Made by a program: the position numbers and the translations under genes. Positions 12,807-57,305 of a stretch of 64,000 bases of DNA are shown here, one piece after another. This DNA is from Macrocystis pyrifera. Taxonomy: Eukaryota; Sar; Phaeophyceae; Laminariales; Laminariaceae. Under the pieces are notes generated by a model. That model did no database searches, had not been told where the DNA came from, and was given only the letters and a program-made list of their open reading frames with translations. Position 1 is the first letter of the stretch. Each line of letters starts with the position of its first letter. Location: positions 10,059,930 through 10,123,929 of the forward strand of contig JASSKH010000007.1 in the NCBI GenBank assembly GCA_031763025.1, in the 5' to 3' direction.

Positions 12807-13546
12807 CGTCTGACGTATTGTTAGGGTGTTAACGAAACTCTTGTCCCCATAACACACCTCAAACGGATAACGTACATGGCCGATAAAACACTTAGCGCTA
12901 TATTGATAATGTGCTACAGGAAGCGTGTACGCAATTTATGTACAGTAATAACTCAAGTTGGCAGATAACGCACATCCCCTCTCTAACATCAACAATTATT
13001 ATAGGTAAACCTTTCGTTACTGTGTTGCCAAGATACATTACGTTACTGATTTAATGTTGGGGCCGAGGTCGTTCCAACGTGATGTTGCGACGTTCCCCTT
13101 TGAGTCTTGCCGAGATTAACATGTGTTACCTGTGTTAGTGGTAAAGCGGCGTCGCGGAGAAACATAATAATGTAGCCGTGTTATCCAATTTCGCCGAAAT
13201 CCCAGCAGGGGACGCCTACAGAAATATATCCGAGAGGGGAGGATGATATAGCATCCCCCGTAAAAAACGCATCGATAATTTTACAGCCCCTGAACAGCAG
13301 GGATTTTCAGGAGGGATCCCCGCAAAAAACGCGTAAAAAAAACGCCGGTACGTTATCCATCTACAACGTAATCTGCATACTCGCACGTACGAGCTAACAC
13401 AGCAGTAACACAGTAACATTATGTTTCAGAGACCTCCGCATTTAGGCTAACATCCTAATAGAAACATAGTGTTACGTATCGACCGGTTAGGACTGTAACG
13501 TTGCTAACATAGGTTATATGTTACGCTATCCGACCCTCAGGCAATC

Positions 13547-13600
13547 AGACTACGGCCATGCATGATAATGAGTACACTCCCCTCCACCTCCCCTCCCCCC
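13547..13600 (+). mobile_element. 3' fragment of C-tailed SINE
   Basis: It contains actacggccatgcatgataa, gagtacac and a C-rich tail, which is the conserved 3' end of the SINE family described at 30731. It is the only fragment found outside the LRRC9 and SHMT genes. Confidence 0.7.
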
Positions 13601-28073: not shown

Positions 28074-31000
28074 GTGGCGGCCACTGGAGAGGAGGCGCTC
28101 GAAAAGCTGGAGGAGTTGGAGATGATATTCGGCGCCGTCGACGAACTTGGAGGTCTCGAGCGCTGCACCAGTCTGCGGTCCTTGACGCGTGAGCGATGCA
28201 ATGACCGACGCGCAACATTCGTCGTTCATGGACCACACGAGCGCTTTTCCTCGCGCCCTCTAACCCCCTTTTGCCCGTAGGTGCAATAAACACAGGGGTC
28301 TCAACTACGGGTTTCTAGCCCTGACTCGCCGTGACACGACTACTTCTCCTGCGTATTTTCGCGGGGTATGATCACCGCTGGACGCGTCGGTTGTCGATTT
28401 TTTTTTAACGCAACCGCCGCAGAGCGCGGATAGTCCACAAGATCATCACAAAAGAAAAAAAAAAAAAACGAAACCTGGGCGGTGGAGAGGGTGGGCGGGG
28501 GGAAAACCCTCGAAAAAAAAGGGAGCACCAAAAAGGGCCTATTTCTAGACGCTCGCACCAATACGCGTTTTGCGATAACTTCTCGTTCCGTTGCGCGAGA
28601 TGGGCGTCCTGTGCGGGGCATCGCGGCCGTGTGGTAACGCCGTACCGACTTCAAAGAAAAATATTTCGTGCCCCACCCGTTCCAATGGGTGGGGATAGCA
28701 TTTTGCTAAACCAGCAGATTGAAGCCCCGCCCGACCGATCGATGGGTCTCCCGCACGAAAGGACAGCATGCGGGATTCAAGAGAGGAAGACGTCGTTCTC
28801 GTTCTTCCCCCCCCCTCACCCCCCCACCGCACTGCCTGAAGGGTGGAAATCCGACTATGCCGCTCCGTCCCGGCACCGTAGGGGCGCGAGGGTCTATAGC
28901 CATACGACTACGGCCATGCATGACTTGAGTGCACTCCCCCCCCCCCCCCCCCCTCTGTCCCTCATCGCGATTGGTTCTAGTGATGTCTGCCTGGTCAGTG
29001 ATAACGTGATGTGCTCCGTCCCGTCATTGTAGGGATGCGAGGGTCTACAGTCATACGACTACGGCCATGCATGACATGAATACCCCCCCCCCCCCCCGCC
29101 CCATGTCCCCTGTCCTCCGTGCTGTGCCTGGACCGGCTCGCATGCAGTAATTGACTGCGGACTGCGGCGCATCTCAAATCTGGAGCCTGTGAGCCATTCC
29201 CTCGTGAAGATGTGTCTGTGCGATCAGGTACGGCAGGGCAAAAGGCGTTTGGCGTTTTGGCGACGTCGAGTCCAACAGCATGTCGTTCTGTGTAGTGAAC
29301 GCTACGTACCACTAAAATATTCATCCTGTCAAAAAATTCCTACGTAGCTAGCTAGCGCGCGCATTCTCTCCAAGCAAATCGCAGCAGCAGCAGCAGCGTT
29401 GTTTTTTTTTTTTTTTTTTTCAGGGGTGGGCGTCCACGTCAGCTTTGCTCGCTTGCGCGTGTGTAATGGAATCGATGCCGCAGTTGCTTTCATGCACCAG
29501 GAAGGTACCAAGCACACCGGTCACTGTCGAGGGTTCAATAGACTACCGTGCACCAATGCGCGCGCTTCGTGCTCCCCCCCCCCCCCCCCGCTCCCCGCGC
29601 GCCGCGGCTTGTTGCTCCTCCGTAGAGCAAAGCAACGGGTAGTCAATCTGTGACAAAGCGTCTAACCCCCCAGTGCACGTCACGGCAGGGTTGAATGAAG
29701 CCTCTCCCGAGACAAATTCGTTCAGTTTTCGTTCGGTTGCGCCCATGCATGCGGAGGCATGCGCAGGAGGTGTAGTGTAACGATCAGGAGCGGTACGCAA
29801 AAAAACAACGAAAACGCGAACGATCTTGTAAAAAACCTGTAGCTTTACCCTTGCGCTTACTGAATAATAGTGTCCCACACTAATTTCAAGTAGTATGACC
29901 CAAAATAATGGTTGCAGTTCTTATGGAGTTGAAGCAAATGATGCGTTCGCCCTTTTCGTTTTGCCCCTCCTTATCCATCGCGAACACCTTTTTGCCGTCG
30001 TTGACATTTCGTTCGCCCTCTTTCGTTTTTTTTTTTTTCAAGTTCACTCTACAGTTTGTTTCCCGACGATTCAATGTGCTTCGGACTTGGTGTTCTGCTT
30101 TTTTCAGGGGTTGGAGAAGATGGAAGGCCTTTGTCTACCGGGCCTAAGGGAGCTATTCCTACACCAGAACAAGATCGTCAAGATAGAGGGGCTGCAGGGG
30201 TGAGCATCCCCTGCTGTTTTGTCTCGCGACACTAGTCCGCGCTAGACGATACCAAGTACCTGGTAGGTCTTTCTCTTTGTAATTATCGCAAGATGAAGCA
30301 AGCTATACTCAGATAACGCGAGGGGTGCGCGTTGTCGACGGAATGGGACCCGACGCTCCAAAACATAGACATCGTGCAAAACTCGGTGATCGAGGGCAAC
30401 ACCTTTCGTTGCCTTTTTTGGGGATGTCGAGCAGGCCACCACGCGGAAGCTGGAACGGCTAATGTATACGGCTCAACTCTTATGCATCTATGGCCTAGTT
30501 TATTCTGCGTGTGAGGTAAGCGTCTCTACTGACACAATGTGCGCCCGTCGCTCCTCCCAGGCTCACAGACTACGTTGGCTGTGTTGACAAGCGCGAGCGC
30601 AAGGGGAGCACCCCCCGGCCCGCACCCGGCCGATCGTTCTCGCGATTCGCCGCGCTGAGTCTTGTGGTCCTTTATCATCGTGTGTTTTTTTTCGTGCTTG
30701 TCTGCACGCCCCCCCCCCCCCCCCCCCGCCCCTATATTTTATACCTGGTATATATAGGTTGGGTTGGAATCGGTTGGCGACGACGCTGTAAAACACGCCT
30801 CTCACTGCGTGAACTAGACAGCCAGGGTACCGTTTTTTTTTTTTTGGCGGTTACCACGGCTGGCGGTCAAGTCAGATCATCTTTGTGCGGGGAGAACCTT
30901 CACTCCGCACAAGGGGGATGATCGTATCACGCAATGAGTATATGGTGAGGCACCCACGAGGCAGTTACATGGTAAACCCATTGCTGTCTCTGGAAGTGGC

Positions 31001-34000
31001 CACGCCAGAAATTAAATCAATTCATTGATGCTGTCATCCATATGCAAGAACATCCGCCTCAAATGCGGTTCTTAGTAGGATGCAGCTCACCCTTCATGCG
31101 ACTCGCCGAACACCTCACGGTGCTTCGCGCTTGGTGCACGCAATGTCTGCCTGGTCGGTGAAAACCCGACGCGCTCCGTCCCGGCATGGTGGGGATGCGA
31201 GGGTCTATGGTCATACGACTACGACCATGCATGATAATGAGTACACCCCCCCCCCCCCCCCCCCCCCCCCGCCCCTCTTTATGTGGTCAAGTCGGCTCTT
31301 AGAACGCCTAAGGCCAAGGTGAACGAAGCGTGACTTTTTCCTCCTTTTGCCCTCCCCTGGTGCTGGCCCAAAGTGCTCCATCTCGGTATTGCAAGGGTGC
31401 TAGGGTCTATGGTCACACGACTACGGCCATGCATAATATGAGCACCCCCATAGTTGATAGAGCTGTATGGGAGAAAGTATCAAAAGGGCGAGCTGGAATA
31501 AGGTGGGAGGGCGTAGTTGAGAAAGTATGGAAGGATCTAGGGGGAAACCAAGTAGAGATGATGTCCGCCGGGAAGTTTGGGAGGTACAAGGCAGACGTAG
31601 AAGAAAGGATAGAAAGAAGGGAAAGGCTAGCGCAAAGAAACAAGGTGGAATCGGAAAAACATATACGGGGGATTGAGGGAAGGAATAGGAATGAAAACGT
31701 ATTTGCATGGCCCAATGGACTTCGCGAAAACGCTGAAACTGCGCTTTCGTGTAGGGGACCTGGACCTGCCAGAAAGAAGAAAGAGGTACACCAGTAGCCG
31801 GGACGAGGAGGAAGTAGACGCACAGATGTGCCCGTGTGGCAAAGCAATAGAGAGTAGAACTCACATAGTAGGAGAATGTGAAATATACAAGGAGGAACGG
31901 GATGTGTTAGAAGAGGAGATGAGGAAAATAGACGAATGTGACATGGAGGAGTTTGATACAATGAATAGCAGCGAGAAAACGATCGCTATCCTAGGAGATA
32001 GATGGTGGCCACAGGAGGCCAAACGGGAAGGGGATAAGATTAGCAAAAAGTTTCTGTGTAATTTATGGAAACAACGTATTGAGCGCCCAATTGTTGGAGG
32101 TGTCTCTATTAGGAGTAGGAACGGTGCTCCGTCTCGAAAGGGATGCGTGGTCAATGGTCAAATGACTAAGGCAAGCAACAAATGAGTACGCCCCCCCCCC
32201 CCGTACCGTCATCGTAGGGATGTAGGGATTCGAGGGTCTATGGGCAATCGACTCTGTCCATGCATGACATAAATACACCCCCTCGTATTTACCCGGCTCA
32301 AAACCGCCATGTTGCTTTTCTCGCTTCTGTTTCCGCCAGATGTCCGTCTCTCCGCCGGCTGTGGCTGTTTTCGAACCACATCGCCAGGATGGAGGGGCTG
32401 CATCACTGCGGCGCGCTGCGCGAGTTGTGGCTGCACGACAACAGCATCACGACGATCGCCGGGGTACAGTCCCTGGTCCACCTGCAGGTACTTCGCCACC
32501 GTGGGCCGCGCCAATGATCACCCGCAGCCATTCTTCGCGGGCCATAGTGGGCCGTGCTGTGCGTTTTAAGAGCGGGGCGGAGCGGGCCGGGGGGGAGCGG
32601 AGTTTGTGTCATGTTGTGCTGTGCTTCGGTTGTTCCGGTTGTCTAGTCCGTACTTATCATCACATCGATGCAGTAGGAGCACGGAATCGCGCGGTGATCA
32701 AAAGGTGATGTGTAGCACTGCTGCGACACCTTGCCCTGTCACTCTTCGCAGCAACTCTTCGCAGCATATTTACGCCTTGGGATATCACTACTGTAGGACC
32801 ATTTCGTCCCCTAAACGGCTCCATGGAATAGCAGTACTTTGCGGAGTGCTCCCCCCCCCCCCCGCCCGGCCAGGCCGGGAGAATCACCCGATACCCAAAA
32901 GCGAGATCTTCGCGACCATCGGACAGCCCGTCTGGTTCTCAGCTATCGGTATTAAGCGATGCTAGCTGAAGTTTTCGGTCCCCAACGTGTTTCACCCTTT
33001 TCCGCGCTAGACACCTTCCATCCATCGGCGATACGAAAGGTACCGCGTTAGCTCACACGCACCCGAAAACACAAAGCCAGCACGCTACAGGTCACCCCGC
33101 CCCCCCCGCTCACGCACCCCGATGACGCTTGGTGCAAGCAAGCAATGCCTACCTGGTCAGCGAAAACCCGACGTGCTCCGTCCCGGCGTTGTAGGGATGC
33201 GAGGGTCTATGGTCATGCGACTAGGGGGGCCATGAATGACATGATTACACCCCCCCCTCCCCCTATTTTACATGCCTGGTATATATATATAGGTTGGATT
33301 GGCGCTGCTTGGCGACGACGCTGTGAAACATGCCTCTCACTGCGTGAGCTAGGCAACCAGGGCACCGTTTTTTTTTTATTTTTGCGGTCACCACGGCTGG
33401 CGGTCGAGTTAGATCATTTGTGCGGGGAGAACCTTAACTCCGCACAAGAGGGATGATCGTATCACGTAGTGTATATATGGTAAGGCACCCACGAGGCAGT
33501 TTTAAAGTAAACCCATTGCTGCCTCTGGAAGTGGCCACACCAGAAAATTAATCGATGCATTGACGCCGTCATCCATATTCGAGAAAACCCGCCTCAAAAG
33601 CGGTGCTTAGCAGGATGCAGCTCACTCTTCATGCGACTCGCCCAATATTTCACGGTGCTTCGCGCATGGTGCACACAACGTCTGCCTGGTCCGTGAAAAC
33701 CCGACGTGCTCCGTCCCGGCATTGTAGGGATGCGAGGGTCTATGGTCATACGACTACGGCCATGCATGAGATCGAGTACACCCCCCCCTCTATACTATAT
33801 ACCTGGTACCTGGTATATATATATATAGCTTGGGTTGGCGTCGGTTGGCGACGACGCTGTCAAACACGCCTCTCACGACGTCAGCTAGACAGCCTAGGTA
33901 TCGTTCTCTTTTCTTTTCTTTTCTTTTCGAGGTCACCACGGCTGGCGGTCGAGTTAGATCATGTTTGTGCGGGAGAACCTTCCCTGCGCACGAGGGGGAT

Positions 34001-37000
34001 GATCATATCACGTAGTGTGTATATGGTAAGGCACCCACGAGGCAGTCACATAGTAAACCCGTTGCTGTCTCTGGAAGTGGCCACAACGAAAATCAAATCA
34101 ATTAATTGACGTTGTCATCCATGTGCAAGAAAATCCACCTCAAAAGCGGTTCTTAGTAGGATGCAGCTCACTCTTCATGCGACTCGCCCTACACCTCTCG
34201 GCGCTTCGCGCTTGGTCCAAGCAGTGTCTGCCCGGTCAGTGAAAAACCCGACGCGCTCCGTCCCGGCATGGTGGGAATGCGAGGGTCTATGGTCATACGA
34301 CTACGGCCCTGCATGATAATGAGTACCCCCCCCACACCCCCAATGACCCGTCAGTACTTCCGAGATCGCTGCGCTCTCACAGTCCACGAAGCAGACAAGG
34401 GCGCGCACGCTCCACCAGCCACCAGCTACTGCCTCACCTCACCCTTGCCCTTGCCACCCCCCCCCAAGCGCTTACCCTGCTCCGCTCCGCCTTACATTGC
34501 ACGCTAAATGCGGCGCGCCTTCTGCGTGGCCTTTCTGACAGAACCTCGGTCTGGCGGGAAACCCCATCGGTGGCGTCCGGCACCTCTCCGGATTGCGCGG
34601 CCTGCCGTCTCTCGTCGACCTGGCCCTCAACGACGTCCACTTTGGCGCTTGCCCCGTCGTCACGGCTGAGGGTTATCGCAGCTTCGTCATGTGCTCTTTG
34701 CGCCAGGTGGGGCGAGGGGCGGGGGGGCGTACTCACTTGTTGCTTGCCTTGGTCGTTTGACCATTGACCACGATCGCGTTCGAGACGAGGCACCGTTCCT
34801 ACTCCTAATGGAGACACCTCCTACTTTTTTGGTGGGTAGAACCCGAAGGCAGATGAGCGCTTTCGTATGGAGTTGTGAGGCCCTGTCGGAGCCTGCTGTG
34901 ACCAATGGCTGTTGCGGGTCGCACTTGCGGGTCCAGATGGGCTCGCGACCGGCTGCGTGTATTTTTGTCAGTGCAGGCGGGCGGGACGGTTCTTAAGAGT
35001 GGTGGGGCGGTTGGGATCGGCACCTTATTGCTTGCAGGGGCTAGAGCGAGAGGCGGAACACGATCGAGATGGAGTGGCTGAGATGCGGAAATACTGCGTG
35101 GCGCGCCGCGTGCGTATACGTAGACGACACTGGTTTGTGTGGCACTTGACGAGGGCGTTGTTAGCGCGGGTAGGCGGTGTGATGAACAAATTGACGCTCG
35201 TTATCGCATTCCACGGGGTGGATCACTGAAGTTTTTCTCGCGCCCGCTTTGCTGGACTACAATCGGGTAAACGTACCGTCCATTTTCCTGCGCACGGTTG
35301 TAACGTGCCGTGCGCTACGCATTCTGTGGGTTTTCTGTCCAGGTGCGGCGACTTGACGGAATGGAAGTCATGGAGGCCGACAGGGCTGACGCGGAGCAGA
35401 AGTACGAGGAAGAGGTAGGTATCTCACAGTCGCGATTTGTTGTGGTCGTTTTTGCTGTTGTTGATGTTGGTATTGTCGGCGGTGGTGTCGGTGTTGCTGC
35501 TACTGTTGCTGCTGCCGCTGTTGTTGTTGATGATGCATGGTGTGATGCTGTGTGTGTTGGTAGGATCATTTTCTCTGTCCGTCAACGTTTTTCCTATTGG
35601 CGGTTGCTCCGGTTCTCAGCATACACACGGTGATGATCCAACTTGGCACGTCTTGACTCTGGCCGCGCCGAAGCACCACTTGATAACATTGCGCGCTGAT
35701 AGCAATGCGGGGTGGAACAGCACGTGAGAAGTAAGTGCCACACCGTGCCATTTCTTCCAAAACAAATTTCGTTCATGTACATCCACGTTTTTCTCCTTCC
35801 CCCCCTCAACGCCATCTTGCACTACTGTACGCATCTGTTAGGCGCAAAAGCGTCGGTGAACACACGTTGACCGCCTTCGCTCTTATTCCACCCCCCTGCC
35901 GACCGCCACAGGCGCTGGCGTATCAGGAGAGACTGGAGGAGATCGAGCGCAGGAGGGTCGGGGAGATTCGGCAAGCGGAGGTAATGCAGTTGGACCGAAG
36001 CAATCGAGAACCTTGATTTGCCACTCGAAGGCAGAAACGGCGGGAGAGTGGCGCACGAAAATCGAGGTTTTATCTTTCCGGTGCTTGGCTGTTGTGGCAG
36101 GTAGTGGGTCATGATTGCGCGGTGAGACACCAATTATTTTACAGGTTAGCTAGAAGGGCCCCGCGGGGAGTATCTATCGCCACGTTGTCTTGATTACGTA
36201 ACACCGATACGAATCGTATGTTCGTGAAGAATGGGCTGCGGGTGACGGTGCTGCCGCTCTTGCAGCTGCCATTCGACGCATTTCCTACCATGCGTAGTAG
36301 GCCTCTCTGCCTTATTTTCGGCTGGCAAGGCAAGTGCCGCGCGCGACTCGCTTTCGTTTTGTATAGACACGTGTTTTTTACCCGCGCGCGCGTCAGGCGA
36401 TTCAGCCGGTCGGCTTCGCAGTATCGCAGTATCCACGACATTGTCCCGGGTCTCGTCTGCTCACTGGAGCAACGTCTTGCTTCGCACCACGGCGCACTCG
36501 TGCTGACTTGTTTTTTGTCGTGCCGTAGTGTGCGTTTGTCTCCCGCATCTTGGGTAAGATCTTGAACTGCTGTTGGTCATCTCCAGCCCCCCCCCCCCTC
36601 CCCGAGAGGAGGCTGTTCCCGCCAACCCTTGAGCCATACCTACCGCATTGTATCAACTGACGCAAGCAACGCTAGCGCTGGCACCGTAGTTCATAGGGTA
36701 GAACTGGACACACACCATTTGATTCCCTGCCCTCCGCGCCTACCCCCCTATATTTTATACCTGGTATATATAGGTTGGATTGGAGTCGGTTGGCGACGAC
36801 GCTGTAAAACACGCCTCTCCCTGCGTGAGCTAGACAGCCAGGGTACCGTTTTTTTTTTTTTTGGCGGTTACCACGGCTGGCGGTCGAGTTAGATCATATT
36901 TGTGCGGGGAGAACCTTGCCGCCGCACAAAGGGATGATCGTATCACGTAGTGTGTATATGGTGAGGCACCCACGAGGCAGTTACATAGTGAACCCATTGC

Positions 37001-40000
37001 TGTCTCTGGAAGTGGCCACACCAGAAATTAAATCATTTCATTGATGCTGTCATCCATATGCAAGAAAGTCCGCCTTTAAAGCGGTTCTTAGTAGGATGCA
37101 GCTCACCCTTCATGCGACTCGCCCAACACTTCACGGCGCTTCGCGCTTGGTGCACGCAATGTCTGCCGGATCGGTGAAAACCCGACGCGCTCCGTCCCGG
37201 CATGGTAGGGATGCGAGGGTCTATGGTCATACGACTACGACCATGCATGATAATGAGTACACCCCCCCCCCCCCCCCCTCCCAACCCCCGGTTGGGTTGG
37301 CGTCGGTTGGCAACGACACTGTAAAACATGCCGCTCACTACGTGAGCTAGACATCCAGGGTACCGTCTTTTTTTCTTTTTTTTCTTTTGGCGGTCGCCCA
37401 CAGCTGGTTGTCGAGTGACATCATTTGTGCGAAGTATAGAACCTTTACTCTGCACAAGGGAATTGATCGTATCACGTAGTGTTCAAGGTAAGGCACCCAA
37501 GAGGCAGTTACGTAGTACTCCCATTGCTGTCTCTGGAAGTGGCCACACCGGAAATTAAACTAACTCATTGAGGCTGTCATCCATATGCAAGTCCGCCTCA
37601 CAAGCGATTCCTAGTAGGATGCAGCTCACCCTTCATGCGATTCGCCGGACACCTCACGGCGCTTCGCGCTTGGTGCAAGCAATGTCTGCCTGGTCGGTGA
37701 AAACCCGACATGCTCCGTCCCGGCATTGTAGGGATGCGAGGGTCTACGGTCATACGACTACGGCCATGCATGAGATCGAGTACATCTCTCCTATCGAGTA
37801 CACGCCCCCCCCTCACTGGTGTGCCCTTTCGGCAGTTGGAAACCCCCCCAGCCCAATCACCAACAGTGTGTTGCTTACTTGTCCGCGGACCTATCGGCAA
37901 CCGCTATGCCGAGCGCGGGCAATTACGCCATGCTGAGTGTCCTATCCGCCCTTGCGCGTGCGACCCTGCGTGCGACCCTCCGTATTTGCTATACACTGTC
38001 TTTCGCGATGAATAGACCCGCGTTAACCATCATCCTTGTTTTTTCTTGTGTTTTCGTCGTAAGATGGCCCGCGACGGGAGTGCGGAAAGAGGGTCGGAGG
38101 TGAAGGCAGAGATGATGAAGGCGCTGAAGGGCCTCGAGGGGCTCGTGCAAGAGGGCCGAGCGTGCATCGCGCAAGAAAGGTCGAGGCAGGAGAAGGTGCA
38201 GAACGCGCATGATGAACAAGCACCGCTGTCGTTATTTTCTAGGCGAATCGCGAGGAGCTTGATGAAGAAACGTGATCCCATGCGCAGAGGGGGCTGGCTA
38301 GGTTGTTTCTTTGCCAAAGAAAACTCCCGTGAAAACGGCCACAGTGCGGCATCTATTTGCCCAACGAGGCCTGCCCATCTCTAGACGCGGACAAACGGGT
38401 TCGTTTGTCGTTGCCATCCTCTGTGTGCGCGATAGCAGCATTTCGCCCACGGCAAGAGGAACCATTTCTCACCGCCTCACCATTTTTCACAGGTGCGCGA
38501 ACTCTCCGTGCCCTCTCTCATTTCCCTCCGCAACGACTCCGCTACAAAATAGATATTTTGGGCACTTGATATTGAGTATACCTCCCCCCCCCCCCCCCCC
38601 GCCGCACGCGCGCTTCGTACACGCCTCCCTCGCCTCGTCACAACCTTAGCCTGCCCCTCCCTCCCTCCCTCCCCCCCCCTCGCCCTTCCTCGTCCGACGG
38701 TAGGTCCAGGCCTCGAATGTCCTAGAGCTAGAGGCCAACCTGTCTGAGCTGCAGCGGCAATACTGTCGCGAGGTGGACAAGAGGGTTCAAGCGGAAGAGG
38801 CCAAGGCTGGGGAAGAGGAACGACTCTTTTCTGCATTGGTGAGAACTCGCGGAGATAATTATGTTGCACTCTTGTTCCCCGCCGGCCCAGTCGGTTTTCC
38901 CCCCCAAAGCGTGCCTTCGTGGTTATAGTCGTTGTTGTTGTTACTGTGTTCATTGTTGTTGTTGTGATTGTGTTTTTTTTGTTGCTGTGAAAACGTGCTG
39001 ATGGTTTCTCGACGCAGGGTAGGGGATATCTCCTAGCATCCCTCTGTTCTAGGGCTCTCTGTTGTCCCGGTTTATGTAAGAATGGCGTTTTTTATAAGTA
39101 GGACCAGATGTTTTACCTGTATTTGGCCCCTCGACTGCTTTCCCTGTTGTGTTGGACCTCCATTTGTACTATTGAACGATCAGGTATCGGCTATGCACGT
39201 CGAGACGTGTTGTATGACGACGGACTGGGTAATAGGCAACGCGAAGCCAGCTTCTTGAAGCTGCTGCAGCTTTTCTTGCCAGAATGCCTGAACGGACCCA
39301 CGAAACTCCCAATTACAGTAGTTCGCCTCCCCCCCCCCACTCCTCCACACGCATGCAAATTTTCACGACGATTTCGTTTCTAAAAGCGCAAAATGAAAAA
39401 ACGAGTGGTGTTGCAATCAGCCGAGGAAATAATTCGGATGAACGGAGAGCAACCCGGCAGAACGAGGCAATCGACCCCCCCCACACACACACATTATTTA
39501 TGGGTTGGGTTGGCGTCGGTTGGCAACGACACTGTAAAACATGCCGCTCACTACGTGAGCTAGACATCCAGGGTACGGTTTTTTTTTTTTTTTTTTTTTT
39601 GGCGGTCGCCCACAGCTGGTCGTCTAGTGAGATCATTTGTGCGAAGTAAAGAACCTTTACTCTGCATTAGGGAATTGGTCGTATCACGTAGTGTTCAAGG
39701 TAAGGCACCCAAGAGGTAGTTACATAGTACTCCCATTGCTGTCTCTGGAAGTGGCCACACCGGAAATTAAACTAACTCATTGAAGCTGTCATCCATATGC
39801 AAGTCCGCCTCACAAGCGATTCTTAGTAGGATGCAGCTCACCCTTCATGCGACTCGCCGGACACCTCACGGCGCTTCGCGCTTGGTGCAAGCAATGTCTG
39901 CCTGGTCGGTGAAAACCCGACATGCTCCGTCCCGGCATTGTAGGGATGCGAGGGTCTATGGTCATACGACTACGGCCATGCATGAGATCGAGTACATCTC

Positions 40001-41997
40001 TCCTATCGAGTACACCCCCCCCCCCCCCCCCGCGCGCGCCCTGCTGACGCCGGCTTTTTTTATGCGCACCCGCTGCGTCGCCCTCAGGAAGAACGTACAT
40101 GCCTGGAACGCGACTACGCTCGCCTCGTGGCACGACAGCAGGTGAAAAGCGAAAGAGTTGCAGGAGCGGTCGTGGGTGCTTCTTGGTAGAAACAAAGGTG
40201 GCGCGTTAGCATAATTGGTGTCTAGTTTGTCGCTACCCCCCCCCCTGCTTCGGTTCGGCATTGTGGAGATGCGACGGTCTATGGTCATACGACTACGGCC
40301 ATGCATGATATCGAATACCCCCCCCCCCCCCCTTCTTCCCCGCCTCCGCTGCGCTCCCCTCTCGTTCCTTCTCGTCTTACCTGTGGCTAAACCAAGTTTC
40401 TTTTAGCGGGCTGCTATGCGAATACACGGGCGTTGATTGAGACTCAGCAGCCGCGGTCCGGTCCCATCTACTGCTTTGTCACTAACGACACTGCTACATA
40501 TCATCCATTTTCTTTTATTTATGACCGTCGCTGCCTCCAGCTGGTCTACCAATCGACATAACATGGTTGCGCGGTAGGCGGTTGTGCTCCTTTTTTGGGG
40601 GTAACAGCCACACGCTCGTCTCGGCGCTGCCCGCCCCTGCTGCTGTGCACGCGCTTAGGCCGGCCGCCTCATCGACTAGTCATTTGCGCTCCCCCCCCCC
40701 CCCCCCCCCCCCGTGAGAGCTGTTGCCTGGCAAGCCTATGTGCTGACACGATTTATTTGCCGCTCTGCTGCCGTGGCCATGACATGACATCTGCAGAGCC
40801 GGGCATCCGAGGGAGTTGCGGTCCAGGAACTGAGCGATCACTCGCCCGATTTTCAGAGAGTGCGAGCGGAGGTTTGGAGCAACCAGAGGACGGGCAGCGG
40901 GTGAGACAGCGGGGGGGGGAGAGAAACGAGGGAGGGTGGGGTGGGTAGGCGTTGGTCTTCGTTGGTGCCATTAATACTCCAGCAACGATTCCCTACGATG
41001 ACTTTCCCTACCACTTCATGTAAACACGTTGTTGTATATGATCGGAGGCGATATCAGACACAGAAGAGAGAGGCGGTGTGAGGGGGGGGGGGGGGGGAGC
41101 GGGGTTGTTGAAAGCTCCGTCGAGACCTTCGGAGAGGGAGAGAGGGGGCTGGTGCGGCGGGGGAACCCTGCGTTGACCGCTCGCCCCTACCGCCTTACCC
41201 TACTCTAGACCCCACCCCACGATTACTTCTCGTCCGATGCGCACGGCACATCTTTCGTTGGGATGCGGGATCCGGCTGGTTTTTTCCGTGAATGTGGTCT
41301 GATGCCCGCTTGTATTTTTGTTTCGTTTGTTTTGTTTGCGCTGTCCTTGTGGCTTCCGCACCGCCTACCTGGTACGTGATTGCTCCTACAGGCAGGTGGA
41401 GCCGATGAACGTCCTGCGAGCGTGTCGACTGTACAACCGCAGGTGAATTTTGCCGACAAGCTGTTTTGTCGTTGTAGTTGATATTGCTTACGTAGCTGGT
41501 ATGATATATACTTGGTGCTTGGTAGGCTTCTTGTTCGCATTGCTCTCGCTCTTACTCCTCTTTTTCTTCCTGCTGCTGGTTTCGACTCGACCCTTTTCCA
41601 CCCCGGGAGGCTCACGTAGCAACTTTCGTCACGCAAAGCAGTCCCTTGGCCTTTCCGTATATGTTTCTCGCTTCGTCGCGCGAAATCAATCCCGTAGCCA
41701 CTCTGTATGTAACACCAGGTACGTGCCTTGCTTTTTTTTTATTCGACGTCAGGCTTTGCGAGGACTTCTTGGCGAAGGCGGGGAACTCGGGGCCGACTGT
41801 TCGCTTCTACCTCGGGGCCAGGTGACGATACATATTGCTTGGTCTCCACTCTCTCTCCTTCACACGTCACACTTTCAAGAAATGCTGCCGTTTCCTCGTG
41901 TCATGCGGTTGACAGACAAATTCCCCCCCCTGCTCCGTCTCGAAAGGGTGCGTGGTCAATGGTCAAACGACTAAGACAAGCAGCAAATGAGCACGCG

Positions 41998-42032
<35 letters not shown>

Positions 42033-45000
42033 TGATCAGAAGACGGGTCTTCGGCGTTTTGCGGAAGGACAACAATGGTCCGTGCGGTGCGCCGTCGCCC
42101 CCTTATCGTCATCGCGGCCGCCGTCGCCACCGCATCCTTTCTTGTCGTTTTTTTTTTGTCAATCTCGGTCGACGCGTGTCGGTAATTTGGTGCCGTGATC
42201 TCAGAACCGCTCGCTGGTATGCTTTGCCTGGTGTGCATCGGACGTGTGACGCGTTCAAAGATAAAGGTTTCACATTTCCGCTAAAAAAAAATCCGAATGA
42301 CAGGGCTCCTTAACCCAAAATCGTCGGAATACCAATCTCGATTGAAAAAAAAAAACGACGTAACTGTATACTCGGGCCATGGTATTGTTCATCGGGATGC
42401 GATTTGATTCTTGCTGAAGTCAGTTTTCGGGTGGGGCGTGGAGCTCCTTAAGGTCTAGTGAGGAGCCTCAGAAAAAATATGACGGAAGACCATAGTAAAT
42501 AGCACCTACGGTACACACAAAAAACCTATATATTTCCCTATTTTGGCTAATAAAAATTGGTCCTATTTACTATGGTCCCCCGTAATAGTGTGAACCTCTA
42601 TCGTAGAACGCCTCGTGTCGAGAACAAGGCGCCCGTCTGAGTTGCGAAGCGACGGAGCGGTTTTGGTGCACCCGAGGGTGTCATGGCACCGTCCATTTTT
42701 TCTCCGCGAGGAAATCAGACACCTGTCGTGCGTCGGCCCGTTCGAAGGACTACTAGTAGACTGTAATCACACCCACCAGACAGACTTTGAGTGTGCTCGA
42801 TTTGCTCGCACCACACGGTGGGCGTAGTAGGTCGCGTCGACTCTTTTTGTGTTGACGCTGGACGGTGCCACGCCCCTATGTCATCACTTTTTCATATCCC
42901 ACAAACTGTGCCCCACGCCCCGTCTCGAAAGGAATGCGTGATCGATGGTCAAAGTACCATTAATAAGGCAAGCGACAAATGAGTACCCCCCCCCCCCTCC
43001 CGTAATTCTCATCCACAGGAAGCTCTTAATTGGTGGTACATTTAGCGCCCGTTGTCAGCTGTACGCCCGTTCGCCCGCCCACCGATCCTCCCCTCCCTCC
43101 TCCCATCGCCCCCCCTTGCCCCTGGTACGTGCGTTTCGGCAGTGGGGACGACGTCGAAGCGTTGTGTCGCGTGGGACTGTCAGCCTTGGGGCGACCGGCG
43201 GTGGTCCTCTTCGCCGATCCCAAGGAAGCGGCTCGAGCGATGACGGAAGCGGTGCCTTCTGTCGAAGGGGGGTCAAGCGAGCTAAACAGACGAGAGCGCA
43301 CGTCAGCGCCACACGAAGGTGCCGTTGAGAGCGAGGGCAAGAGAAAGTTGTGATGGGTTGTTGTCGGCTTAGCAATGTATCGCTGTCTATTATGTCATGG
43401 CAGGTATCTGGTAGTTTTTTCTGGCTGCGGTTCGCGGAACGAGGGCGGCGTGCGTGAGGCGCAAGGAAGCGCCTCGAACAAGTGCGTGCGTGTGTGCGGT
43501 CGTCGCTATTAATAGTCCCCTTTTTTGTCGTTTTTGTCTCCCCGTCTCTCTCGATGTTTCCGGCCACGCTATGCATCAACGGAGTAACCACGTGGAAAAA
43601 AATATGGAGTGCCTGTGGTTTACACCTCGGGTGTAACTGCGCTACCGTTTCAGTTTCGAGACCATGTCCCGCAAAAACTGTTGTTTTTTGTGTCCTTCGC
43701 GTGGTGCAAGGCGCCGATGCAGCCGTTGTCTGCAGGCGGCGCACTCGTCTTCCTTTCTTCCTTCCTTGCTTTCTTCCTTTCTTCCTTCCTGTGGTCCCCG
43801 AGTCGTCCCCTTCCTGTAGAAGGCTCACTCTCACCCAAGGAGTGAAGCAGACGTACGGACACATCACAAGAGCTACAGTATTGCCTCGGTGGCGCGCAGC
43901 ACGTACTCAGACTCAACCTTCGATCCCGCACTTGCCAGTTTGAACGCTTCGGCTGGCATCCTATTCTAATCCCCCCCTCGCATCCTTTTTTTTCATTTTT
44001 GTTTTGGCGGTCACCACGGCTGGCGGTCAAGTTGGATCATTTTTGTACGGGGAGAACCTTGCCGCCGCACAAGGGGGATGGTCGTATCACGTAGTGTGTA
44101 TATGGTAAGGCGCCCACGAAGCAGTTACATAGTAGCCCCATTGTTGTCTCTGGAAGTGGCCACACCAGAAATTAAATCAATTCATTGATGCTGTCATCCA
44201 TATGCAAGAAAATCCGCCTCCAAAGCGGTTCTTGGTAGGATGCAGCTCACCCTTCATGCGACTCGCCCAACCACCGCACGGCGCTTCGCGCTTGGTGCGA
44301 GCAATGTCTGCCTGGTCGGTGAAAACCCGACGTGCTCCGTCCCGGCATTGTAGGGATGCGAGGGTCTATGGTCATACGACTACGGCCATGCATGATAATG
44401 AGTACACTCCCCCGCCCCGCCCCCCCCCCAATCCTCCTTCTCGACACACGCGTTTTCCCGCCAACTCCACCACCCTTGTCCCCCTGAACGAAAAAAAAAA
44501 CGACGCGCTGTGACACCATCACGAACCTCAGCCGAAGCAGCAGCACCAACAGCAGCAGCAACAACAAGACCACCAACAATAGCAGCAAAAGCAACAACAG
44601 CAGAAGTACCAACGAAGGTAACACGGAGCTCCGCTTCCCCCGTTCCGACGGTTCATGGCGCCGGTATCGACACCGGCCCCGAAAACGTCCTCCTGCAGTT
44701 TGCTGTGGTCCTCCTGGAAGGAGACGTCGACATAGTGGTGGAAGACAGACCGAACCGCCACAGCAGGGGCGCGGAGCCGCGGGGGGCGAGGGTCCAGAGC
44801 ACCCCGCCGTACCGGGCGGGGGCTAGGGTCCGGCCGGTGGGGGCGCAGCCTGCGACAGGGGCGGGATCAAGGGGGTCCGGAGAAAGAGAAAAGGAACGCG
44901 ACGGGGGACCGAGCGGCGGGGCGAGCGTGGGGGTGTCCGCCGCCCTTGTCGATCGAGCGGTGGCGTCCGGGCGTGCTACTCGTCTCACACAGCCTTCGGT

Positions 45001-50252: not shown

Positions 50253-52203
50253 TTACTTGGCCGCGTAGCGCATGGTCTTGTCGTCAAAGCCGACGACAGG
50301 GAAGTCGCGGCAGAAGCTCACGACATCCGCCTTGAGCTGGGCGATCTCGGGGTAGGCGCTGCCGCCGTCGGCGAGGACCGCGCGGTACGCCTTGATCTTG
50401 CCGGTGTCCGCCGCGACCTTCTGGGCAATCGTGACACCCCTGTGGAAGAACGCTCCGACCTGCTCGAAATCCTCCTCTGCGAAACAAAAACCAAACACGA
50501 ACGGAGAAGAACGAAAAGGAAAGGCAAAGCGAGGAAAGGAAAGGAAAGAAATGGAAAGGTCAGGAAGTGAAAAAAAATGCGAGGAAACGAAAGGCAACAC
50601 CTGCGTTCAACTGGCCGGTTGGTTGGTGTTTCGGCCATAGGGGAAGGAACCAGAGGCAGTTCTAGCGAAAACACAGTTTCATTATTGGAGGGGGGGGGGG
50701 GGGGGGGGGGGGGGTCCCTTACTCGAATATTAGGCCAAGCAAAGAGGATACCGTCACACGTGGACGGGAGGCAAGGCGAGGGTAATTCAGGAACTCCTGC
50801 TGACTGCGCAACCCTTGCTATCAATTGTTGTACCGACGAAACAATGCGGCGAGAGGGGGTGGAGGCCTGAAGACGAGAACACATGAACGGGCGGCACACA
50901 CAAGCAACCCGACTACCCACACACGCTTCACCTCTCTCCCCCCCGCCCCGTTCCCCCCCCCCCACAAAAAAAAAACTAAAATAGAAGCAAGGTACGTAAC
51001 GGAGAACTACACGGAGAACCATGCCGGCAAACGCTGGCTATCCGTCATCGAGATTCCCTGGGCGAGCAAGGACTCACCCGTGAACCCCCGAGAAGTGAGC
51101 GCAGGCGCGCCCATGCGAATCCCTCCAGGGGTGAGCGCGCTCTTGTCCCCGGGTACGGTGTTCTTGTTCGTGGCCATGTTCACCATCTCCAGGATGAGCT
51201 CAACCCGGGCCCCGTCGATGTTCTGCCATCGGCGACAGTGTGACGCGCCAAGTCAAATCAAAATCACGCCGCGTCAGATTGAGACCAGGTGGTCCCAGCA
51301 TCGCACACCAAGGCAACGGCAAGCGACAACCGTTGCTGTACTACTTTTAGCAATGATTGTGTCGGGGCCTAAGCTGGGAGGGGGGGGGTGTACTCGATAC
51401 TAGAGATGTACTCGATCTCATGCATGGCCGTAGTCGTGTGACCATAGACCCTTGCATCCCTACAAAGCCGGAACGAGCATGTCGGGTTTTCACCGACCAG
51501 GCAGACATTGCTTGCAACAAGCTCGAAGCGCCGTGAGGTGTCCGGCGAGTCGCACGAAGGGTGAGCTGCATCCTACCAAGAACCGCTCGTGAGGCGGACT
51601 TGCATATGGATCACAGCTTCAATGAGTTCATTTCATTTCCGGTGAGCCCACTTCCAGAGACAGCAAAGGGAGTACTATGTAACTGCCTCTTGGGTGCCTT
51701 ACCATAAACTCTGCGTGATACGATCATTCCCCCTGTGCGGAGCAAAGGTTCTTCACCTCGCACAAATGATCTAACTCGACTACCAGCCGTGACCGACCGC
51801 TAAAAAAAAAAAAAGCGGTATTCTGTTTATCTAGCTCAAGAAGCGGAGGGAGTGGGGGGGGGGGACTCAGGCAAGCAAATACAAGGATCTTCCGATTATA
51901 TTACAGCAGAAAATAAAATAAAAACATTTCTACTTATATTAGTACAGCTAGTATATTCAGATCGGAGATAAATCAGGTAGAAGAGAGAGCGAGAGAACGC
52001 ACGACAAAGGAGAATCGCCACCCCAGACACAAGCGTGAAAGCTCACCGATGACTTCCTGAGGTCTACGAGCACGAGGTGGTTGTCGGTGCCGCCGCTGAC
52101 CAGCTGGTAACCGTCGGCGTTAAGCTTTTTCGCCAGCGCCGCCGAGTTTTTTATGACCTGGTGGTGGGCACACCCAGACCGACATACGACAAACAACGCA
52201 AGG

Positions 52204-52237
<34 letters not shown>

Positions 52238-54382
52238 ACAGGGTAAGCCGAAATCATGTAACCGCGGGATGCTTCCGTTTGGGCGCCTCAGGGCCTCAAC
52301 AAAGAAAATCTCCGTGCCTTTCTATACGTACGACCCTCGCAACAAACACAACACGCAATGCGCAAACTGCACATTACATAACGGTGTCCCAAGAGTCTTG
52401 AAGCCGCACGCACCGATGCGCGGGGAGCGGGGGGGAGGGGTGCAGCAAAGACGTCGCGTCCTGCTTCATAAACGACAACGCGAAGCCAAGAACCACGCCC
52501 GAGACAAAAAAAAAAAACAACAGCAAATGCTGGCACTCGTCAACAAACTATTACGGGGGTCCATAGTAAATAGGACCAAATATTCTCAGTAAAAATAGGT
52601 AAACACATAGGTTTTTATGTATACCATAGGTCCTATTAACTACGGACCCCCGTAATAACACAAAAGTATATCTATCTATCTATCTATAAGCCCTGGTTCG
52701 GTGTAGACAACCTCTTCCTGCCTGACCTGCTTCTGATACGCGACGTACTCCGGTTCCTTGGCCTGCTTGAGGGCTGTCGCGAGCGCGGTGATGGTGTGGT
52801 TGTGCGGCCCGCCCTGCAGTCCTGCGGCAACAAAGAGTCATGCGGATAAGGGGAAGCAGAGGGGGGAGGGGGCGGGGGGGGGTACTCATTATCATGCATG
52901 GCCGTAGTCGTATAACCATAGACCCTCGCATCCCTACAATGCCGGGACGGAGTAGGTCGGGTTTTCACCGACCAGGCAGACATTGCTTGCAACAAGCGCG
53001 AAGTGCTGTGAGGTGTCGGGCGAGTCGCATGAAGGGTGTGGGGGTGGAAGTAAGAGAAGATAGACAGGCGGGTGATATTTACGACGAATACGAAAGAGGC
53101 GTTCGCTACCTTGGACATAAAAGGTCCTGACGGGATCGGGCGCGGGGGGAGGGCAGAAGGGGAACCACATACTAGGCTAAAATATGAGGCGGCTGGGGCG
53201 ACTGACTTCCTTGCGAGGACGGCGGCTGAAAACGCCCATCAAACGAGAGGAGAACCGCATGTCAAAAGAAGCCGAGGGCAGCCGGCCGCAGTCCCCCGGC
53301 ACGTCGTCCGCGGCGCGCAAGACACTCGCATTGTAAGACAAAACGAAGGTCACGACCAAGTTTCACAAGAACGCCCGAAGGGGAACAGTTATTTTTACAA
53401 CTCCTTCCTACGACCAAAGGGAAAACATAAACGTCACGGCACAGCTAATTTGCCTAGCGTGGATTTCAGGAGGGTCAACAATCGCCTTTTTAACTACTCC
53501 CGCCCAAGCCTGGAGGTCGAATAGCTCGACCAGAGCCAGCGGCGACAAATACATCAGAAGCCTTTTGTGCGCTCAAAATCGTATCAAAGGCTTGACCTGC
53601 ACACGTAACCAGGCGAGGTCTTCCTGTTTGTGCTATTACCACTCCTATACATGTTGGGCTCAAATCGTGTCGAGGCGCATCCACCTACAGCCGGGGGGGG
53701 GGCGTCCCGTGTTTGCGTATGAGTTCGTTTCTACTCCTGCGTACCGGGGAAGACGGCGAAGTTGATCTTGTTCTCGATGTCGTACATGATCGGCTCTCCC
53801 TTCTTGGTCGTGCCGCGCTGGCCCTATTTCGTTTTTTGTCGTGAGAACGAGCAGCACCAGTAGACCAGCACAAACAACAGAAACGACACAAATGACACAT
53901 AATAGGTGTGTATTCATAAACTCGTAGGTGCGAAATCTCAATTAATAAATACTGAGACATGGTTACGCATTACCTAGTATACAGCGTAGAACGGCGAACG
54001 ACCTACACGGAACGTAGCAGAGTACTGAAACGGGGATGATGCTTACGAGCAGTCGAAGGACTCATGTGCGCGCCACGCTTGCGCGGGCCTGCTGCGCTGT
54101 GTTTCTTACTTCGTCCTTACAGACGTGAAGCGCACCTTTCGGTAGAAGATCATGGCTCCGCGAGGGCCGCGCAGGCTCTTGTGGGTGGTGGTGGTGACGA
54201 TGTCGGAGTACGGGAAGGGCGAGGGGACCACGCCGGCGGACACGAGGCCGCTGATGTGCGCCATGTCGGACAGCAGCCACGCGCCGGACGCGTCCGCGAC
54301 CCTCCTTCATGCGGGCGTAGTCGATGTTGCGGGCGTACGCGCTCGCTCCGGCCACAATGAGCTGTTGTTTCGCGTCATCGAC

Positions 54383-54432
<50 letters not shown>

Positions 54433-57305
54433 AGAAGTAGCAGCCGGCAGCCAGCAAAAAGCGACAGCAGCAGCAGCAGCAGCAGCAGCAGTAGCAGCAG
54501 TAGCAGCAGTTGGCACCGAACATTTGCGTCAGCCAGGGAGCGGAAAGCACTCGGAATAAAATATACCAGGTAACTCTTGTAGGATCCAGGTACAGTATGG
54601 CGACCTAAACTTTAGAGAAATCAGGTCTGTCCCTTTCGGGGTTTCCGCCACGTTCCACCAGACAACAAGCACCTTGTCAATCTCTTACGCTGGTAGTAAC
54701 AGTGGCATACCGGAACCCGACGTTCATGCCATGTTTTTATCCCCAGCCTAACAAAAAAAACACAGCTCGACCGCGCACAGTATAGTACGTACACACGACG
54801 CACACTGCGCATATTGCGCGCCTCTTTTGCGAAGTTGACAAAATACAACCCCCCCTATGTATTAAATACGTTCGTATCACACATACATAAAACCAAAAAA
54901 TACTACTGTATCGTAGGTATAGTGGAGAGCAACGTCTGTGGGTGAACCGTTGGGTACTAACGTCTACGCATGCGGAGAAAAAAGGAACTGACCTTGGGGC
55001 GGAAGAGCTTGGCGTTGGCCGCCATGGTGTCGTAGTCGATCTGGCCCGTGCTCTCATCCAGGCGGTAGGGGAACGTCTCGTAGAAGGAACTCACCTGAAA
55101 GACGTCAAAAAAGAGAAATAACGCAAGATGAACGAACGGGGGACAAGAAGGCATGGCGCGAGAGGAAAATGTCATCGGAAGAGAGGACAAAGGGTGTTGA
55201 TGCAGAGCAAAGGAGGGGGGGGGGGGGGGTAATCATGTCATGCATGACCGTAGTCGTATGATCATTGACCCTCGCATGCCTACAATGCCGGGACGGAGCA
55301 CGTCGGGTTTTCACCGATCAGGCAGACAATGCTTGCACCAAGCGCGAAGCGCGGTGAGGTGGTTGGGCGAGTCGCCTGAAGGGTGAGCTGCATCCTGCTA
55401 ACAACCGCCTGTTAGGCGGGGGGGGGGGGGGGGGTATACTCATGTCATGGCATGGCCGTAGTCGTATGACCATAGACCCTTGTACCCCTACAATGCCGGG
55501 AAGGAGCACGTCGGGTTTTCACCGTCCAGTCGGGAAAGGAGGTCTTCGACAGGGAGGGCGTCCCTCCGCCTCCTCGGAGCTTCGACTCGCTGGTCATTCA
55601 GGGTCGGCCGGAATCGCTGCCGCTGAGCTAGCAATACTGGCTCGCACAACAATCCGGTCGAATGTCAACATATTCCCCCGGTTCGGTAGATATCTGTTCA
55701 TCCTGTTGCACTCCTCATCTGGAAGATGTAATGCAGTGTACAAAACACGCAGCAGCACGATGCACTCGCCACCGCCAACAGCTATGAGCCAAAGTGATGG
55801 TTCTCTTGCTGCCCACGCGGGGCATTTAAACGGGAAAAAAAAAACAGACTATACAACGAAACCGAAACCGAACTAAACGCGTAAAAAACAAAACTAGCGC
55901 CAGCCTGAGACCGCAAAATCGTTGGCATTACGACCGGTAAGCAGATAACCGAGCCAAGGCAAGGTAAGCACACGATTCGAAGAACGATTTTTTTTTGGTA
56001 AAAAATAGATTATTATTGCGGTGGAGGCAAGCCCGAGCCCCACCCAGAAAAGGGCGGAGGTGATCGCGGGTGGCTTTGCTTGAGCTCACAGAAAAACAGC
56101 CTCAGCAACTAATTTTGCCGCCGATTTTCATGCCGGGCATCTCTCCTTTTATTTCTGCGCCTACCTAGTCCATGGAGGCTACCCCCCTTCGCCCTTCAGT
56201 CTCTTATGTGCCTTTCGTCCTCCATTTTGTAGGACTGGGCACTGGCTGACTCAGTCAGTAGCGATTATACTGTCGTCAAAATCAATCAGCATACTGGGTT
56301 GCAGCGGTATACTGTCTCTTCTCCCCGAAACGCATGTGGTGGGTTTCCGTACTATAGTACGGCGTGTTTCTTGGACGTACGTAATAGAAAAACTGCTGGT
56401 GAACATACTGGCCGGGTCAATCAGTAGAATAGTACTGCCAGTACATACTGTGGCAGTGCCCACCCCCATCATTTTGCCCCCCTTCCGCTCTGTATCTCTC
56501 TTTTGCTTTTTGTCCCCGTTTTGCCTTTGGTTTCCTGGCTTTCTATTATCGCGCTATCTTTGTGTTGCTTGCTTTCTCACCATGGAAATCTTCTTGGTGT
56601 CGGTCTGGTACCCGTGGGAGAGGTGGCCACCGTGCGGCAGGTCGAGCGACATGATCCGGTCATGCGGCTGAAGCACCGCGGTATACGCCTTGAAATGAAA
56701 GAAAAGCAAAGAAAAGCAAAGGACAGAACAGTACAGAATAGGGCAGCTCAGGCCGAGGGAAGCAAGGGCGATCGTAGCGCTTTCGAAACATAACGCGATT
56801 CAATCAAACGCTTCCCGCGAACCAAACGCTTCCCGCGAAAAACCTTTCGCGACACCTTTGTGCGGATTGTTTGGGTCCTGACCAAAACCACATGCTCACG
56901 AACTCCTTCCGGATTTCCGCTTGCACGACCCTCGCGCAACCAAAGAACTGCTGATATTCAACCCAATTTGTCTGTTTTGCTGATAATACTTCACACATGT
57001 GAGGAAACCCATCTCGAAACGTTGGGGCTACAGCATACACCATACCCTTCCGCCGCCATCGGGCGCAGCGCAGCAAGCAGGAAGTAGCTGCTGCTGTGGG
57101 AAAAACTGCAGTACAGTACCAGTCCTTCCAGCTGCTCGACAAAAAACACGACCGGGGGAGGCTGACTACTTACACTAACCATGCCAGACGGCACGAACTA
57201 AAATAACAAAATTGTACGTAGTGCGAGGAGCCGCGCGCGTGTCAGCCCACCGCTAAAGACGCGTTCAATTTGCGATCGATGAACAAACTAATCAATCCGC
57301 AAGGC

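What the first reader, a model, noticed from the sequence alone, without database searches (positions are those of the whole stretch)
30731..42032. SINE/LINE pair with a shared 3' end and poly(C) tails
Seen: at least six nearly full-length SINE-like copies and many 3' fragments end in a fixed phrase (gctccgtcccgg ... gggatgcgagggtctatggt ... aatgagtac) followed by a pure C tract. The LINE fragment at 31447-32202 ends with a homologous phrase (gctccgtctcgaaagg ... gcgtggtcaatggtca ... aatgagtac) and the same kind of C tail. Known: SINEs often borrow the 3' end of a partner LINE whose reverse transcriptase recognises it. Inference: this is a mobilising pair that uses C-tailed RNA instead of poly(A), which I do not recall being described for this kind of element.
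Basis: partly seen in the sequence, partly recalled or inferred. Interest (0 to 1): 0.85.

Follow-up and report, generated by a model that had tools for sequence, protein, structure and literature searches.

The report
C-tailed LINE and SINE partners
A brown-alga genome carries a self-copying element and a short hitchhiker that share the same tail end followed by a run of C, and copies of both often sit in runs of C, including each other's tails; the kind of pair is known, but a C tail in place of the usual A tail is an unusual variant.

Summary
The window has 18 SINE-like copies (six nearly full length) and four LINE 3' pieces. About 53 nt at their ends are homologous (SW 40; best of 5000 shuffles 28), then a C-run follows. 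In 18 10-kb stretches of the same scaffold, 22 of 23 intact 3' ends lead into C>=5 (background 4.0%). Twenty LINE ends chosen by protein match all have C tails. The LINE has endonuclease and RT.

Thirty-five of 117 copies start beside another copy, all same strand; in 33 a C-run lies between.

Best reading: a LINE and its SINE use the L1-style tail/primer match with C:G in place of A:T, so tails become landing sites. Assembly statistics match giant kelp. A similar pair is in print for Ectocarpus; the parts I read do not mention C tails. RNA, enzyme specificity, empty sites and LINE clade are untested. New variant of a known kind.

The parts
13545..13575 (+). SINE 3' fragment (S18), C-rich downstream
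28832..28932 (+). SINE 3' fragment (S1); C9/C7 upstream, C18 downstream
28963..29082 (+). SINE 3' fragment (S2) starting just after S1's C18 tail; own C15
30709..30732 (+). 5' copy of the likely target duplication of S3: C19GCCCC
30733..31244 (+). nearly full-length SINE (S3)
31246..31276 (+). C25GCCCCT after S3 (tail plus likely 3' target duplication)
31367..31444 (+). SINE 3' fragment (S4), C5
31450..32189 (+). LINE 3' part (L1); in-frame stop TGA at 32183-32185; shared 3' end 32124-32188
32191..32202 (+). C12 tail of L1
32200..32275 (+). SINE 3' fragment (S5) directly after L1's tail (profile boundary overlaps the tail by 3 nt)
33121..33248 (+). SINE 3' fragment (S6); start set by eye between profile alignment 33126 and envelope 33106
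33264..33779 (+). nearly full-length SINE (S7) starting in S6's C tail
33792..34325 (+). nearly full-length SINE (S8) starting in S7's C tail
34729..34826 (-). LINE 3' fragment (L2), C7 tail
36749..37260 (+). nearly full-length SINE (S9), C17 tail; the blastn query was 36745-37261
37290..37783 (+). nearly full-length SINE (S10) starting after S9's C tail
39494..39995 (+). nearly full-length SINE (S11), C17 tail after a ~20-nt repeat of the ending
40246..40317 (+). SINE 3' fragment (S12) between C10 and C15
41931..41994 (+). LINE 3' fragment (L3) between C8 and C35
42917..42985 (+). LINE 3' fragment (L4), C12 tail
43992..44405 (+). SINE, 5' truncated (S13)
51408..51853 (-). SINE, 5' truncated (S14), C11 at its 5' side; between SHMT exons, sense
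52883..53038 (-). SINE 3' fragment (S15); C tail upstream of the SHMT exon at 52.8 kb
55230..55419 (-). SINE 3' fragment (S16) starting in S17's C tail
55437..55531 (-). SINE 3' fragment (S17), C17 tail

Best explanation
This is a LINE/SINE pair of the shared-3'-end type in which the tail/primer match is C:G in place of A:T. SHOWN in DNA: a LINE with AP-type endonuclease and reverse transcriptase; its stop codon about 5 nt before the C-run; a homologous ~53-nt ending in LINE and SINE; C tails on nearly all sampled copies; C-runs also at the 5' boundary of more than half of the copies; same-strand nesting in earlier tails; a few likely target duplications of the form C-run plus the bases after it. 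INFERRED: the LINE enzyme binds the shared ending of either RNA, nicks the G-rich strand of a C/G tract, and the freed G-run primes reverse transcription on the C-run at the RNA's 3' end; slippage lengthens the tail. Because each copy leaves a C-run with a fixed strand, it becomes a landing site for the next copy in the same orientation. The SINE has no recognisable Pol III promoter and carries an internal T-run, so its RNA is probably made by Pol II or by read-through from host introns (inference).
For: Shared ending: (SW 40 against at most 28 in 5000 shuffles), reciprocal profile hits. LINE protein: PF03372 5.5e-11 (L012:5122-5964), PF00078 1.4e-14 (L011:6040-7344); closest solved structure L1 ORF2p 7.9e-9. 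C tails: 22 of 23 intact ends in 18 stretches of 10 kb taken at fixed steps on the window's scaffold, background 4.0%; 45 of 47 with the window included and a slightly looser definition of an intact end; 20 of 20 LINE ends picked from the protein-match list and not by tail, 19 measured first runs 7-116 nt. Tail independent of the target: 10 of 33 non-nested copies have 5' C<5, and 7 of those 10 still have 3' C>=6. 5' C-tracts: 42 of 72 non-nested copies C>=6, against 1.75% (18 stretches) or 6.9% (window region). Nesting: 35 of 117 copies begin within 60 nt of another copy, 35 same strand and 0 opposite; in 34 the upstream copy reaches its 3' end and in 33 a C-run of 5 or more lies between. Target duplications: own 5'/3' flanks are more alike than re-paired flanks (57 of 5000 permutations reach the observed sum, 87 copies; an earlier look at 67 copies gave 52 of 2000); clearest at L058, L061, L067 and window S3.
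Against: No RNA, enzyme assay or empty site was examined. Most copies have no target duplication visible beyond the C-run, and several flank matches are C-rich and near chance (13 at score >=18 against 6.5 expected). Among non-nested copies with 5' C>=6, the 3' run is longer in 12, equal in 1, shorter in 7 of 20, so tail length alone does not separate tail from target. Thirty of 72 non-nested copies have no 5' C>=6. The proposed 3' hairpin has no double-sided compensatory change in 21 sequences and five single-strand folds are no better than shuffles. Two of 47 intact ends lack C>=5. None of the 150 scored LINE matches has an open frame above 634 aa; assembly errors in homopolymers or decay could explain it. 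The random sample comes from one scaffold, and the 40 places were selected for a C tail.
Confidence: 0.78

Rival explanations
1. The elements have no tail of their own; they insert inside pre-existing poly-C microsatellites, and the 'tail' is the remaining half of the target.
For: C-runs lie on both sides of many copies; C>=10 runs without any recognisable copy exist (25 of 42 in the 18 stretches, 17 of 32 in the window); 3' runs are not consistently longer than 5' runs (12 longer, 1 equal, 7 shorter of 20).
Against: 7 of 10 non-nested copies without a 5' C-run (C<5) still have 3' C>=6; 20 of 20 sampled LINE ends have a C tail, the longest measured 116 nt, starting within a few nt of the same point.
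Confidence: 0.12
2. The short element is an internally deleted LINE derivative and not an independent SINE that captured a LINE tail.
For: 3' end shared with the LINE; no Pol III boxes in the order needed, no tRNA in the window, no Rfam match.
Against: The 438-nt SINE body has no similarity to the 4.09-kb LINE stretch beyond shuffled controls (best 22 and 24 on the two strands; highest of 30 shuffles 27). A different, unseen LINE subfamily could still be the source.
Confidence: 0.2
3. The resemblance of the two endings and the C-runs are chance in a C-rich, repeat-rich genome.
For: The genome has many homopolymers (runs >=10 in 180 kb: A 29, C 18, G 24, T 38).
Against: 3705 against 6 matches for the real and the reversed phrase; 4.0% against 22 of 23 at the 3' side and 1.8-6.9% against 42 of 72 at the 5' side.
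Confidence: 0.01

Closest known systems
RTEX-N1_Ec32 with RTEX-1/RTEX-2_Ec32, Ectocarpus sp. 7 (PMC12477816; section 5 part 1 of 2 and search passages read)
   Same: Non-autonomous element of ~600 bp, more than 6000 copies, 3' end conserved with autonomous RTE-X LINEs, origin of the 5' region unknown; also a brown alga.
   Different: Sequence identity to the kelp pair untested (library is in supplements that I could not open). C tails, C-tract insertion and nesting are not mentioned in what I read; Fig. 1C is said to show terminal motifs and I could not view it.
RTE-clade LINEs with simple-repeat tails (Tay et al. 2010, PMC2887409; abstract and outline seen)
   Same: One reading frame with endonuclease and RT, extremely short 3' UTR of simple repeats, often only 3' parts present, tails that seed microsatellites.
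   Different: The repeat here is a C homopolymer; the clade of the kelp LINE was not established by a tree.
SINE/LINE pairs of the 'stringent' type and their 3' repeats (Ohshima 2013, PMC3747384; passages and the whole figures/tables section read)
   Same: SINE borrows the LINE 3' end; the six green-algal RTEX families listed end in simple repeats.
   Different: Tails in Tables 2-3 are A, T, ATT, CTTT, TTG, TTGATG, CA, CAA, CATA, TAA, CTATTT, CCAT, ACAATG, CTTGTAA; no (C)n is listed. The tables cover plants and green algae.
Mammalian L1 with Alu (recalled; the 5'-TT|AAAA-3' site is quoted in PMC13295347, passages seen)
   Same: Tail complementary to the target primer; insertion into earlier tails (recalled for Alu).
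   Different: A:T code, relaxed 3' recognition (passage), Pol III-made Alu (recalled).

Membership tests
Non-LTR retrotransposon (LINE) | Endonuclease plus reverse transcriptase in the element | tested here: met
   PF03372 5.5e-11, PF00078 1.4e-14 and 2.1e-6 (the last below its cut-off) on stop-free pieces of L011/L012
Non-LTR retrotransposon (LINE) | 5' truncated copies with a fixed 3' end and tail | tested here: met
Non-LTR retrotransposon (LINE) | Target site duplications | tested here: inconclusive
   Permutation 57 of 5000; only a few clear cases because flanks share the C-run
RTE / RTE-X clade | RT phylogeny places it in the clade | not testable with these tools
   No library of LINE RTs; the eight PDB matches at E<=0.01 are five LINE-1/RNA-directed DNA polymerase and three R2 sequences
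RTE / RTE-X clade | Very short 3' UTR ending in simple repeats | tested here: met
   TGA then GTAC(G) then C-run in L1 and AGCAACAAATGAGT in 20 of 20 sampled ends, which were picked for an intact protein end
SINE (strict sense) | Pol III promoter or small-RNA head (tRNA, 5S, 7SL) | tested here: not met
   No tRNA, no Rfam match at E<=5, best B box 3 mismatches, T-run of 4-22 inside each of six full-length copies
LINE-dependent short element (broad SINE) | 3' end homologous to a LINE of the same genome | tested here: met
LINE-dependent short element (broad SINE) | Mobilised by that LINE's enzyme | not testable with these tools
   needs an assay
RTEX-N1_Ec32 family | Sequence homology to the Ectocarpus consensus | not testable with these tools

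The most novel reading that the evidence does not exclude
A retrotransposition system that has replaced the A:T tail/primer code by C:G. The LINE endonuclease opens G-run strands, poly(C) RNA tails anneal to the G-run primer, and each insertion leaves a strand-fixed C-run that recruits the next one, so LINE and SINE together build same-orientation head-to-tail arrays and seed C-tracts, often in the sense strand of introns.
Probability: 0.45. Interest if true: 0.72.

Novelty: new variant of a known kind. Interest (0 to 1): 0.52.

Why it matters
Tail composition and target choice are thought to be linked through primer pairing in target-primed reverse transcription. A natural C:G case, with thousands of copies, would let that link be tested independently of poly(A) and of poly(A)-binding proteins. 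It may also account for a good part of the long C-runs of a kelp genome (17 of 42 runs of 10 or more in the 18 stretches touch a copy) and may matter for splicing, since tails such as that of S15 lie just upstream of an exon.

Tried and rejected
Hairpin as the recognition signal: UGGUC-N4-GACUA can be drawn in both families, but there is no double-sided covariation and folding is not better than shuffles, so not claimed. Longer 3' than 5' C-runs as proof of tailing: 12 against 7 of 20, not convincing. LINE stretch as source of the SINE body: no. Ribozyme or small-RNA heads: no Rfam match. Viral-contig searches for the LINE protein and two tail patterns: nothing. PDB search with the LINE C-terminus: four matches, best E 0.73, none meaningful. 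Sense orientation: S14-S17 lie between SHMT exons in sense and S6-S8 after an LRR exon in sense, L2 antisense; other exons of the LRR gene were read by eye only (one tested gave no Pfam family), so this stays an observation. L011 and L012 are near-identical duplicates (96% over 10 kb) and count as one LINE insertion; the LINE 5' boundary rests on that one case and was set by me at the end of a C-run. A first look at target duplications (67 copies, 52 of 2000 permutations) was repeated after adding 20 loci (87 copies, 57 of 5000).

Paper searches: with terms for C tails or C tracts; on brown algae or kelp LINEs/SINEs; on kelp genomes; on microsatellite-targeting LINEs. No title or abstract start in these listings was about C-tailed LINEs or SINEs; most listed papers were not opened, including a few that hold 'poly-C' or 'polyC' in the text (PMC9942856, PMC10742642). 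Parentheses cannot be searched, so 'poly(C)' as printed would be missed.
Full report
SOURCE. The window is G000:C221:10059930-10123929 of a genome of 537,376,219 bases in 223 contigs. The published giant-kelp assembly (Macrocystis pyrifera, PMC10498591, passages seen) is 537 MB in 35 scaffolds and 188 contigs, together 223. Window genes fit a eukaryote with introns: SHMT exons on the minus strand (PF00464 hits within open frames at 58.4-59.1, 54.1-54.3, 52.7-52.8 and 51.0-51.3 kb) and an LRR exon on the plus strand (32341-32487, PF12799 1.2e-7).

OBSERVATION. Eighteen SINE-like copies and four LINE 3' pieces lie in the window. Six SINE copies are 494-530 nt. The two families share only their last ~53 nt as far as tested (one SINE against one LINE piece; one SINE against a 4.09-kb LINE stretch), in the same order and ending at the same GAGTA(C) point before the C-run (21 sequences). 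The LINE frame ends in TGA inside this ending (ORF 31631-32185), so the shared stretch overlaps the last codons of the LINE and the 3' UTR is GTAC(G) plus the C-run. Twenty further LINE ends, chosen by hand from the protein-match list, most from its top, among matches reaching residue 184 (20 of 150 listed), all keep AGCAACAAATGAGT.

TAILS. In 18 stretches of 10 kb at fixed 500-kb steps on C221, the window's own scaffold, there are 26 copies after merging overlaps, 23 with an intact 3' end; 22 of 23 have C>=5 within 40 nt, background 4.0%; A>=5 appears in 2 of 23, both behind a C-run. With the window, and with a slightly looser definition of an intact end, 45 of 47 have C>=5 within 60 nt. All 20 LINE ends fetched show a C tail; 19 fit the measuring pattern with first runs of 7-116 nt, and L039 has a short interruption before a long C-run. 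Homopolymer lengths in a long-read assembly are approximate.

TARGETS. C-runs also stand at the 5' side. In the window 14 of 22 copies have C>=7 within 35 nt upstream, against 5.6% of random same-strand positions. Over four samples (window; the 18 stretches; two sets of 20 places selected for AATGAGTAC+C7, that is 40 of the 100 places listed out of 3705), 42 of 72 copies that do not start beside another copy have C>=6 upstream: 9 of 15, 12 of 19, 12 of 20, 9 of 18. Thirty-five of 117 copies start within 60 nt of another copy (7 of 22, 6 of 26, 9 of 34, 13 of 35), all on the same strand, none on the opposite strand. On checking, in 34 of the 35 the upstream copy reaches its 3' end and in 33 a C-run of 5 or more lies between; the exceptions are L085, possibly one copy in two pieces, and L027, a SINE-LINE join without C-run. 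Of the 20 LINE ends, 18 had a measured run and at least 20 nt after it and were tested; 6 of these 18 run into another SINE or LINE copy. The one near-complete LINE locus (L011/L012) itself begins after a C29-31 run that follows a degenerate SINE-like ending.

TARGET DUPLICATIONS. Comparing each copy's 5' flank with its own 3' flank, against re-paired flanks, 57 of 5000 permutations reach the observed sum for 87 copies; 13 pairs score >=18 against 6.5 expected, reached by 34 of 5000. The clearest are L058 (CCGGCC-AACTCACA), L061 (CATAAGG), L067 (CCCTGGT) and window S3 (CCCCGCCCCT); up to 3 nt at the inner end may belong to the element. They have the form C-run plus downstream bases, which places the first nick at the C-run, on the G-rich strand, as expected if a G-run primer pairs with a C tail. 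For most copies the flanks share the C-run only.

THE LINE. L011 and L012 hold near-identical, frame-broken copies of one LINE of about 4.1 kb with endonuclease and RT. The nearest solved relatives of the RT part are L1 ORF2p (7.9e-9), then R2. The C-terminus has a C-x-C...H...C pattern (read by eye) with no Pfam family. The clade was not tested; RTE/RTE-X is a lead from the short 3' UTR with simple repeat (PMC2887409 abstract) and from Ectocarpus (PMC12477816).

THE SINE. No tRNA in the window, no Rfam match, no good A/B boxes, an internal T-run of 4-22 nt in all six full-length copies, the shortest (S8) being T4. A Pol III transcript would be expected to stop at the longer ones (established knowledge), so the strict SINE definition is not met; 'LINE-dependent short element' is safer. 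Its body is not from the LINE stretch in hand.

READING. Together these results favour the L1-type logic (tail pairs with the nicked target) with C:G in place of A:T and with a shared 3' ending as in other SINE/LINE pairs. Tails serve as landing sites, which gives same-strand arrays. Steps not shown: RNA ends, endonuclease preference, RT binding, empty sites.

NOVELTY. The pair type is known, and a very similar pair is in print for another brown alga. Published 3' repeats of green-algal and plant LINEs/SINEs that I could read do not include (C)n (PMC3747384 Tables 2-3). Paper searches with terms for C tails listed nothing on the subject, within an open-licence library that lacks most subscription journals. 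Repbase was not available.

One search was added; it lowers the nested cases with a C-run between from 35 to 33.

Noticed in passing
window 51010-59092, minus strand, and 32341-34706, plus strand: Copies inside SHMT introns (S14-S17) and after the LRR exon (S6-S8) lie in the sense direction of the host gene; L2 (34826-34729) is antisense. Free C-runs of 10 or more at 52205, 53693 and 32851 are also on the sense strand, but shorter C7-C9 runs at 54849, 57579 and 57637 are antisense to SHMT.
   Followed up: partly
window 52837-52882, minus strand: The C tail of S15 lies about 55 nt upstream of an SHMT exon, where a pyrimidine tract would be expected.
   Followed up: no
L011 and L012 (contigs C2 and C17): Two small contigs are 96% identical over 10 kb, so they look like alternative versions or duplicates of one region.
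   Followed up: no
L064:610-781: Two SINE endings meet tail to tail on opposite strands, 62 nt apart, with a C-run directly followed by a G-run.
   Followed up: no
L021:6765 and L030:3834; L025:7339 and L028:3636: Two other repeated sequences in the genome carry C10-11 runs without recognisable SINE/LINE endings (seen by eye).
   Followed up: no
window 37784-37805, 39996-40015 and 51406-51388: A SINE subfamily repeats its own ending (ATCGAGTACA ... ATCGAGTACAC) before the C-run, as if reverse transcription had restarted.
   Followed up: no
L027:7381-6764, minus strand: A SINE and a LINE piece are joined end to end without a C-run between them.
   Followed up: no
window 10.5-13.5 kb and 18.5-20.5 kb: Stretches with one further match elsewhere in the window in the self-comparison (depth only; partners not looked at).
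   Followed up: no
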